From Campylobacterota bacterium (lineage in GTDB: Bacteria; Campylobacterota; Campylobacteria; Campylobacterales; Sulfurovaceae), in contig QKDN01000048.1 in the NCBI GenBank assembly GCA_003252535.1, forward strand, positions 1 to 64,000: a stretch of DNA of 64,000 bases, given 5' to 3'. A program made the position numbers and the translations under genes. The notes under the pieces were generated by a model. It saw nothing but the letters and a program-made list of their open reading frames with translations. It ran no database searches and was not told the DNA's origin. The stretch's first letter is position 1; the number at the start of each line of letters is the position of its first letter. Of this stretch, positions 30,898 through 33,204 are shown piece by piece.

Positions 30898-30994
30898 TTT
30901 ATATTCCTTTTTGCAGTCATTGCTATATATATCATAGTGTACTTTGGATATTTTTTTGATAAGATAAATTCAAATAAATTCAAGAGAGATGAAA

Positions 30995-31780
30995 ATGTAT
31001 TTAGAAACAATCAAATGTTTATGTGGAGAAACGATTGATTATAGTAGTAACTATACAGCTCAAATGATTTCTAATGAAGATTTTTATGAATTTCAAGAGC
31101 TCATTGAGCATCAGGTGACAGAAACTGATGAGTTTATCAGAAGTGTCTATCAATGTTCAGAATGTGGTAGGCTGTATATAGAGAATGGTCAGGACAAAAA
31201 TGAATTTGTTACTTTTGTACCTGAGCAAAATATCAAAAAAGAATCGTGTACTTCAGATGAAGGATTAAGTATTAACGGATTCAAAATCATTTCAACTCCT
31301 TCTGATGATAAACTCAAAGAGCCAAATAGAAAAGTACTGAATTCAATCAAAGGTGAGAACTGGAAAAATGAAAATGTTCGAAAACGACTGAAAGAGTCTA
31401 CATCTCACGATCAAACATTTTCAATAAAAAGCATATTTACCGATGCTTTTAGAAAAAGAACACCTATGTATACCGGTGAATTTAGTCTTCGATCAATTTT
31501 TTGCTACATTGATACTTATAGATGGGCTTTATTGGAGCATGGTTTTATCGATAGGGATGAGATTGATTTCCATGAGTATACGAGGAAAAAACTTGGATTT
31601 CATGAATCAACAGCAGGTTGGGCGAATATGATATTGCCATACTCATTGGGATATGATGTAAACATGAAGGACTGGTGCTGGGAAGATTTGCAAAACAGGC
31701 ATGTCTCATTGGAAGAACACAAAAAATCTATAGAACTTTTTTTTAGAATGGTTGATGAGTTTTATGATAAACATGAATGA
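30995..31780 (+). CDS. AT-rich orphan protein with N-terminal zinc-ribbon-like motif
   Basis: 261 residues, not recognised. The first 65 residues hold ETIKCLCGETIDYSS and VYQCSECGRLYIENG, a CxC...CxxC arrangement like a small zinc ribbon. The C-terminal ~120 residues (RSIFCYIDTYRWALLEHG, YTRKKLGFHES, LPYSLGYDVNMKDWCWED) look like a compact helical domain with many aromatic residues. Start ATG 30995 is spaced from AGAGAG; ATG 30989 is adjacent to it and less likely. The DNA is strikingly AT-rich against the flanks, as for the GNAT gene at 19 kb, suggesting acquisition. The candidate RNA follows it. Confidence 0.65.
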   Translation: MYLETIKCLCGETIDYSSNYTAQMISNEDFYEFQELIEHQVTETDEFIRSVYQCSECGRLYIENGQDKNEFVTFVPEQNIKKESCTSDEGLSINGFKIISTPSDDKLKEPNRKVLNSIKGENWKNENVRKRLKESTSHDQTFSIKSIFTDAFRKRTPMYTGEFSLRSIFCYIDTYRWALLEHGFIDRDEIDFHEYTRKKLGFHESTAGWANMILPYSLGYDVNMKDWCWEDLQNRHVSLEEHKKSIELFFRMVDEFYDKHE

Positions 31781-31799: not shown

Positions 31800-31828
31800 T
31801 TGCACCAAATGAAAGTTTATGTTATAAT
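31800..31828 (+). promoter_or_regulatory. Extended -10 promoter before the candidate RNA
   Basis: TGTTATAAT (31820-31828) is a perfect TGnTATAAT extended -10 element; TTGCAC (31800-31805) lies 17 nt upstream as a weak -35. A start near 31835 would coincide with the 5' end of the folded segment. Confidence 0.6.
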
Positions 31829-31833
31829 ATCGC

Positions 31834-32012
31834 CAGTTGGGGCAGTGAGAGAGCGGGAACTCTCTCAAAGCTTTTTAATATACTCTGACTGTTAGTAATA
31901 ACAGCAGAAATATAACAATTACAATTGTGCGTTGCATTGTTACTCCTGTTGAAAAGCTGACCCTGTCCCACCGTTCACCTCGCAACACAACTACAATCTA
32001 ATCGCCAACTGA
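31834..32012 (+). ncRNA. Candidate structured RNA (~175 nt), class unknown
   Basis: No coding frame is visible. Pairings: CAGTTGG (31834-31840) with CCAACTG (32005-32011); alternatively or in part TGGGGCAG (31838-31845) with CTGTCCCA (31963-31970). Hairpin GAGAGAG-CGGGAA-CTCTCTC lies at 31848-31867, followed by stem AGCTTTT (31869-) with AAAAGCT (31952-31958) and hairpin CTGTTA-GTAA-TAACAG inside it. The size, promoter and closing stem recall 6S-like or other housekeeping RNAs, but I could not match it to SRP RNA, tmRNA, RNase P RNA or 6S. It lies between AT-rich and normal DNA. Confidence 0.45.
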
Positions 32013-32067
32013 CTTACACACTCTATCACACTCTATCACAAACTTTTCCTAAAAAGCTAATTATATG

Positions 32068-33006: not shown

Positions 33007-33055
33007 GTGAGTCTCCTGTCACCTTGATCTATTCAGATACTATACCATAAATTCC

Positions 33056-33171
33056 GTAGGGTGTTGTCTCCCGACAACACCATCGTGTACGGTGATAGAA
33101 AATATATACAATAATGCAGGAGGATTTCCATATTCGGGATATTGCGGTGCTGTCGGGGGACAGCACACTAC
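33056..33171. repeat. REP pair bounded by GTAG...CTAC, GGTGYTGTC family
   Basis: GTAG (33056-33059) plus GGTGTTGTC-TCCC-GACAACACC (33060-33081); mirror GGTGCTGTC-GGGG-GACAGCAC then CTAC (33168-33171). The left arm has TT/AA where the right has CT/AG, so each hairpin stays paired by compensating changes. It fills the gap between two minus-strand genes; nothing else is seen there. Confidence 0.85.
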
Positions 33172-33204
33172 GGGGTTCGTAGTGTAGGAAGTTGTGAAGA
33201 GGTT

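What the first reader, a model, noticed from the sequence alone, without database searches (positions are those of the whole stretch)
31800..32012. Candidate unrecognised structured RNA with extended -10 promoter
A perfect TGnTATAAT precedes a ~175-nt non-coding stretch with a long-range closing stem, a 7-bp G/A-rich hairpin and a second long-range stem. The size is near 6S RNA but the branched layout is different. It follows an AT-rich orphan gene, so it may belong to an acquired module, for example an RNA-protein pair.
Basis: partly seen in the sequence, partly recalled or inferred. Interest (0 to 1): 0.6.

Follow-up and report, generated by a model that had tools for sequence, protein, structure and literature searches.

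The report
Antisense-controlled tiny membrane toxin gene
The suspected lone RNA is one strand of a multicopy bacterial element whose other strand encodes a 20-residue membrane peptide, so it looks like a toxin gene held silent by its own antisense RNA, of a family not described in the papers I could search.

Summary
In detail: a perfect TGTTATAAT at 31820-31828 precedes a strongly folding segment (z about -4). But the stretch is not simply non-coding. Its minus strand (31937-31875) encodes MQRTIVIVIFLLLLLTVRVY behind AGGAG. The ~181-bp element (31833-32013) occurs 9-10 times in its own genome and in about 31 Sulfurimonas/Sulfurovum-group assemblies. In 70 distinct copies the + strand extended -10, a minus-strand -10, the hydrophobic 18-20 aa peptide (K/R at position -3 and Y/F at the end, 61/61 unique tails) and the RNA folds are conserved. 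Wobble pairs are strand-asymmetric. The closing 5'-3' stem and the pairing that buries the start codon belong to the minus-strand mRNA; the AAGCUUUU/AAAAGCU helix belongs to the + RNA. So both strands make selected RNAs. Best reading: a type I toxin-antitoxin family, Ibs/Sib-like in peptide and layout, with a closed toxin mRNA like H. pylori aapA/IsoA. It fails the Rfam SIB_RNA cut-off and I do not file it there. The 'orphan gene partner' idea is not supported: the gene has no homologue in 98 relatives while the RNA is widespread. Toxicity and transcription are untested.

The parts
31820..31828 (+). Extended -10 (TGTTATAAT) of the antitoxin RNA promoter
   Evidence: 66 of 67 copies have at least 5/6 TATAAT at this place against 12 of 67 in a control stretch
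31833..31976 (+). Inferred antisense antitoxin RNA (start from the -10; minimal 3' extent from the helix partner CCTGTCCC; may run to 32013; 3' end not determined)
   Evidence: folds; helix AAGCUUUU/AAAAGCU shows G-U only on this strand, 14 against 0 in 33 cluster representatives
31846..31867 (.). Hairpin TGAGAGAG-CGGGAA-CTCTCTCA; 5' hairpin of the + RNA, 3' hairpin of the toxin mRNA
   Evidence: 98% paired with compensatory changes at 4 of 8 pairs
31833..31840 (.). Arm 1 of the closing stem (CCAGTTGG): 5' end of the + RNA, 3' part of the toxin mRNA
   Evidence: 100% paired in 13 copies with compensatory changes; G-U on the toxin mRNA strand 16 against 2
32005..32013 (.). Arm 2 of the closing stem (CCAACTGAC): 5' end of the toxin mRNA
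31875..31937 (-). Toxin ORF, 20 aa: MQRTIVIVIFLLLLLTVRVY, stop TAA
   Evidence: 64 of 70 copies keep an intact 18-20 aa ORF; 61 unique tails, no stops, codon-position divergence 0.48/0.16/0.45
31943..31947 (-). Shine-Dalgarno AGGAG of the toxin ORF
   Evidence: sequence; AGGA/AGGAG-type site before ACAATG in the intact copies
31955..31971 (-). Near-invariant 5' UTR block GGTGGGACAGGGTCAGC of the toxin mRNA; its complement closes the + RNA helices
   Evidence: entropy about 0 to 0.26 bits; used as the search pattern
31833..32013 (-). Inferred toxin mRNA core (closed by the 5'-3' stem; exact ends not determined)
   Evidence: model R1
32020..32025 (-). Degenerate -10 (TAGAGT, 4/6, preceded by TGA) of the toxin promoter in this copy
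   Evidence: sequence; in the family 52 of 65 copies have at least 5/6 TATAAT here against 11 of 65 in control

Best explanation
The segment is one copy of a chromosomal, multicopy type I toxin-antitoxin family. The minus strand makes a short mRNA for a ~20-aa single-span membrane peptide (toxin). Proposed mechanism: the toxin mRNA folds into a closed form in which its 5' and 3' ends pair and the AUG is buried by a 5' UTR segment and by ORF sequence, which keeps translation low. The more strongly transcribed antitoxin RNA pairs with the mRNA and blocks translation or exposes it to RNase III. If antitoxin supply falls, the peptide is made and depolarises or damages the inner membrane. Shown: both strands carry conserved promoters and conserved, strand-specific RNA structure, and the peptide is under coding selection. 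Inferred: transcription, antisense repression, toxicity, membrane target and trigger.
For: Peptide selection: 64 of 70 distinct copies keep an 18-20 aa ORF; codon position 2 is conserved while 1 and 3 vary; K/R at -3 and Y/F at -1 in 61/61. Two opposed promoters. Covarying mRNA fold: 15 pairs with compensatory changes, shuffles 0/500, and slid controls collapse from 95.7% to at most 48% paired. Wobble asymmetry assigns the closing stem (G-U:A-C 16:2) and the AUG-burying stem (51:3) to the minus-strand mRNA, and AAGCUUUU/AAAAGCU (0:14 after removing a fixed column and redundancy) to the + RNA. The AUG is mostly paired (mean unpaired 0.16 against 0.32 over all positions). Several copies per genome, with tandem pairs and triples. 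Decay consistent with toxin loss: one frameshift and two insertions into copies. Weak but strand-correct likeness to Ibs/Sib in both directions: Rfam SIB_RNA is a sub-threshold hit of 8 copies, always on the antitoxin strand; model R1 ranks K-12 ibsE, ibsC and ibsD first, in register, above everything in a 30-kb control; Ibs peptides fit the family profile better than 99.5-99.97% of their own shuffles.
Against: No transcript or toxicity data. No classical U-tract terminator for either RNA. In this copy the toxin -10 is degenerate (TAGAGT) and the AUG is less buried than in most copies, so the window copy may be weakly expressed. The SD is mostly unpaired at equilibrium and in-silico 3' trimming does not free the AUG, so the aapA-type 'activation by trimming' step is not supported. 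Rfam SIB_RNA scores are far below the cut-off of 56.
Confidence: 0.85

Rival explanations
1. A stand-alone structured non-coding RNA (regulatory sRNA) read from the + strand, with no coding role on the other strand.
For: Strong fold and strong promoter on the + strand; the AAGCUUUU/AAAAGCU helix is specific to this strand.
Against: Coding-type divergence and a fixed stop-free hydrophobic ORF on the minus strand, in-frame 3-nt length differences, a conserved SD, and mRNA-strand-specific wobble pairs.
Confidence: 0.05
2. A MITE-like mobile element: ~185 bp, terminal inverted repeats (CTAGTTGG...CCAACTAG), multicopy.
For: Terminal inverted arms and up to 12 copies per genome.
Against: Conservation runs outward past the arms into both -10 boxes, no target-site duplication is seen at the arm ends, the ORF is under selection, and many Sulfurimonas copies sit at the same place between species, with both flanks alignable at about 65-92% identity.
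Confidence: 0.05
3. A small membrane-protein gene with an antisense regulator in which the peptide is not toxic (for example a modulator of a membrane enzyme).
For: Toxicity is not shown; the C-terminal K/R-x-Y is as invariant as a specific binding motif would be.
Against: Extreme I/V/L interchangeability, many copies per genome and decayed copies fit a membrane-disrupting toxin better; published IbsC data show wide tolerance to sequence change (PMC8309996, PMC7192591).
Confidence: 0.1
4. An RNA-protein pair (for example type III-like) with the neighbouring 263-aa gene at 30989-31780.
For: Adjacency in the window only.
Against: No homologue of the gene in 98 relatives, phages or plasmids and no defence-family match, while the RNA element is widespread without it.
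Confidence: 0.01

Closest known systems
Ibs/Sib type I toxin-antitoxin of Escherichia coli (Rfam SIB_RNA, RF00113)
   Same: Toxin length (19 aa against mostly 19 aa), I/V-rich then L-rich hydrophobic run ending in Y, ORF wholly inside the antisense RNA, a hairpin near the 5' end of the antisense RNA, about 40 nt from the antisense start to the ORF stop (39 nt in sibC, about 43 here), several copies per genome.
   Different: SIB_RNA scores 17-23 bits against a cut-off of 56. Ibs C/D/E lack the K/R at position -3 that is invariant here. The near-invariant GGTGGGACAGGGTYAGC leader and the closing stem are family-specific. Different phylum, and no counterpart of the G+C-rich hairpin with a T run at the 3' end of sibC.
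aapA/IsoA type I toxin-antitoxin of Helicobacter pylori (same phylum)
   Same: Multicopy chromosomal family; small membrane peptide; antisense RNA overlapping the toxin gene; toxin mRNA closed by a 5'-3' end interaction with conserved folding (as described in PMC6733600).
   Different: In aapA the SD is sequestered and 3' trimming activates the mRNA. Here it is mainly the AUG that is buried and in-silico trimming does not free it. The peptide here is 18-20 aa against 30 aa for AapA1. Sequence homology with AapA was not tested.
6S RNA
   Same: Length near 180 nt.
   Different: No 6S match at the gathering score in the window or at E up to 10 around the segment; branched fold; protein-coding opposite strand.

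Membership tests
Type I toxin-antitoxin system (general kind) | Short hydrophobic, single-span peptide gene under coding selection | tested here: met
Type I toxin-antitoxin system (general kind) | Overlapping antisense RNA with its own promoter | tested here: met
   conserved extended -10 and + strand-specific structure; the transcript itself was not observed
Type I toxin-antitoxin system (general kind) | Peptide toxic on overproduction and rescued by the RNA | not testable with these tools
   needs expression experiments
Ibs/Sib (RF00113) | Rfam covariance model gathering score of 56 bits | tested here: not met
   best 22.6 bits; 17.1 bits in the window
Ibs/Sib (RF00113) | Ibs-type peptide sequence | tested here: inconclusive
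   Ibs peptides fit the family profile beyond composition (fractions 0.00035-0.005) but lack the invariant K/R
Ibs/Sib (RF00113) | Antisense RNA spans the whole ORF and the RBS | tested here: met
   layout compared with annotated sibC/ibsC on predicted boundaries
aapA/IsoA | 5'-3' long-distance pairing of the toxin mRNA | tested here: met
aapA/IsoA | SD sequestration relieved by 3' trimming | tested here: not met
   SD mean unpaired 0.76; AUG stays paired after trimming (thermodynamic model only)
aapA/IsoA | AapA peptide homology | not tested
   no H. pylori sequence fetched
6S RNA | Match to a 6S family model | tested here: not met

The most novel reading that the evidence does not exclude
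Ibs/Sib of enterobacteria and this Sulfurimonas/Sulfurovum family are remote homologues (or one was transferred long ago). Type I systems, thought to be narrowly lineage-bound, would then span phyla as fast-drifting peptide/antisense pairs that standard searches miss. Here the family also has a start-codon-burying closed mRNA whose ends form the same inverted arms from which both RNAs start.
Probability: 0.25. Interest if true: 0.75.

Novelty: new member of a known kind. Interest (0 to 1): 0.6.

Why it matters
The papers I could search report no type I system in Sulfurimonas or Sulfurovum. This would be a sizeable new family (about 31 assemblies, up to 12 copies in one genome) in ecologically important sulfur oxidisers. 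It comes with aligned copies, assigned strands and a defined fold, so the wet tests are direct. It also shows that strand asymmetry of wobble pairs can tell which strand of an overlapping pair owns each helix, useful for finding such loci elsewhere.

Tried and rejected
Rfam scan of the window: nothing at gathering score. tRNA/tmRNA: none. Pfam, NCBIfam, PADLOC and PHROGs on the neighbouring 263-aa gene, and Pfam and NCBIfam on family peptides: no confident hit. Viral contigs by pattern, plasmids and phages by blastn: no copies. A Ruminococcus MAG match (L097) is not a copy: only 16 bases fit the model, at 13.8 bits. The SD-hairpin CCUUU/AAAGG was considered as an mRNA element, but its wobble counts lean to the + strand and its alignment shifts, so I claim nothing for it. 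dN/dS alone was not used as proof because an in-phase antisense frame gives a similar ratio; the codon-position pattern and C-terminal invariance carry the argument. The 3'-trimming activation model was tested in silico and not supported. Literature: Fozo 2010, Arnion 2017 and the T1TAdb paper are not held, so 'undescribed' means not in the papers and Rfam searched here.

Full report
OBSERVATION. The extended -10 TGTTATAAT is at 31820-31828 on the + strand. It alone is not significant: three perfect matches in the window against 1.2 expected. The segment after it folds better than all shuffles on either strand (z -3.7 and -4.4; the minimal + RNA z -4.2). The hairpin 31846-31867 and the long-range stems are there. 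No Rfam family reaches its cut-off in the whole window.

WHAT WAS MISSED. Read on the minus strand, 31937-31875 is ATG...TAA coding MQRTIVIVIFLLLLLTVRVY, with AGGAG five bases upstream. The only weak Rfam lead on the segment, SIB_RNA at 17.1 bits and E 1.9, points the same way: Sib RNAs are antisense antitoxins to 18-19 aa Ibs peptides.

A FAMILY. The 261-bp segment has ten matches in its own genome and seven in two congeners. An alignment of 13 intact copies gave covariance model R1. R1 finds 9 copies in the window's genome and 12 in another Sulfurovaceae genome. Across 399 genomes of the order and 397 of the class it hits only the window's family and one other family. A leader pattern found 54 loci in 84,980 species genomes, all but one Campylobacterota (Sulfurimonas, Sulfurovum and unnamed relatives, about 31 assemblies). 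The exception, a Ruminococcus MAG, does not fit the model. No copies were found in viral contigs, plasmids or phages. In many Sulfurimonas copies both flanks are orthologous between species at about 65-92% identity, so these are inherited chromosomal loci, not recent insertions.

CODING. Of 70 distinct copies, 64 keep an intact 18-20 aa ORF. The 61 unique C-terminal tails have no stop. Mean pairwise difference is 0.48, 0.16 and 0.45 at codon positions 1, 2 and 3, the signature of hydrophobic residues swapping among I, V and L. Position -3 is K or R in all and the last residue Y or F in all. Column-shuffled versions give on average 43 of 61 sequences with stops and never reach the observed hydrophobicity. 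One copy is frameshifted and two are broken by small insertions, as expected for a toxin.

TWO PROMOTERS. At the + strand start 66 of 67 copies have at least 5/6 TATAAT, and at the minus strand start 52 of 65, against 11-12 in control stretches. Each -10 lies a few bases outside one inverted arm (CTAGTTGG), so both RNAs begin with nearly the same sequence. In the window copy the toxin -10 is poor (TAGAGT).

TWO STRUCTURES. The consensus mRNA fold has 15 pairs with compensatory changes and 95.7% of cells paired; 0 of 500 shuffles match, and sliding the partners drops pairing to at most 48%. It is closed by 5'-3' pairing. Inside, the leader CGAUUA pairs with ORF sequence and (G)CAUUG with CAAUG(C), burying the start codon. 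A G-U pair on one strand is a disallowed A-C on the other, so wobble counts tell which strand owns a helix. Closing stem 16:2 and AUG-burying stem 51:3 favour the mRNA; AAGCUUUU/AAAAGCU has 0 G-U on the mRNA side and is a + RNA helix. The pattern holds with one copy per 85% cluster (11:2, 20:3, 0:14). Across 64 copies the AUG is mostly paired (unpaired 0.16; all positions 0.32) but the SD is open (0.76), and cutting 20 or 45 nt from the 3' end does not free the AUG.

MECHANISM. Shown: selected peptide, two opposed promoters, two strand-specific folds, complete overlap. Inferred: the peptide is a membrane toxin; the stronger + promoter supplies an antisense RNA that pairs with the leader, RBS and ORF and blocks translation or triggers RNase III; the closed mRNA is a second lock. 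High variability in codons 2-6 and in one leader segment (entropy 1.3-1.7 bits) could give copy-specific pairing, by analogy with the Sib recognition domains, which overlap the coding sequence and the initiation site (PMC4147584). That is inference.

COMPARISON. Against K-12 loci fetched here, R1 run without filters ranks ibsE, ibsC and ibsD as its first three hits, on the right strand and in register (13.9, 11.3, 10.4 bits); the best in 30 kb of unrelated E. coli DNA is 9.1. SIB_RNA hits 7 of 20 copies at 17.5-22.6 bits, always on the antitoxin strand. Ibs peptides fit the family profile better than their shuffles. This is consistent likeness, not membership: the cut-off is 56 bits and Ibs lacks the invariant K/R. 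The closed mRNA and multicopy habit recall aapA/IsoA of H. pylori (PMC6733600), but SD sequestration and trimming-based activation were not met.

The structured RNA is real; 'non-coding' and 'paired with the 30995 gene' are not supported. That gene has no homologue in 98 relatives, phages or plasmids.

LIMITS. No expression or toxicity data; RNA ends not determined; copies are related, so counts are not independent events; key catalogue papers were not available, so novelty is relative to the library and Rfam searched here.

Noticed in passing
window 33040-33190: A 151-bp palindromic repeat (GTAGGGTGTTGTC...GACAGCACACTACGGG) between genes with 24 matches in the same genome, probably a REP- or MITE-like element; similar GTAGG...CCTAC repeats lie beside several copies of the toxin locus in G231.
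   Followed up: partly
L022:1518-1853 and L008:1466-1916: Two copies of the locus are interrupted by different small insertions with terminal inverted repeats (GGCATCCTTCAT... and GGGGCGCCTCTAATAACCC...), which break or alter the toxin ORF but leave the antitoxin promoter.
   Followed up: partly
L004:1497-1674: Copy with a 4-nt deletion inside the toxin ORF (MKTTILLFFCCYC) but an intact antitoxin promoter.
   Followed up: partly
L064:4309-5119; L078:1218-3010; L096; L109: Tandem pairs and triples of the locus within about 0.3-1.8 kb.
   Followed up: no
window 30989-31780 (+): AT-rich 263-aa orphan gene with paired cysteines (CLCG...CSEC) near its N-terminus; no confident family match and no homologue in 98 relatives, phages or plasmids.
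   Followed up: partly
window 31955-31971 (-): The 17-nt leader block GGTGGGACAGGGTYAGC is almost invariant (entropy about 0), more than its pairing needs; it may be a protein- or RNA-recognition site shared by all copies.
   Followed up: no
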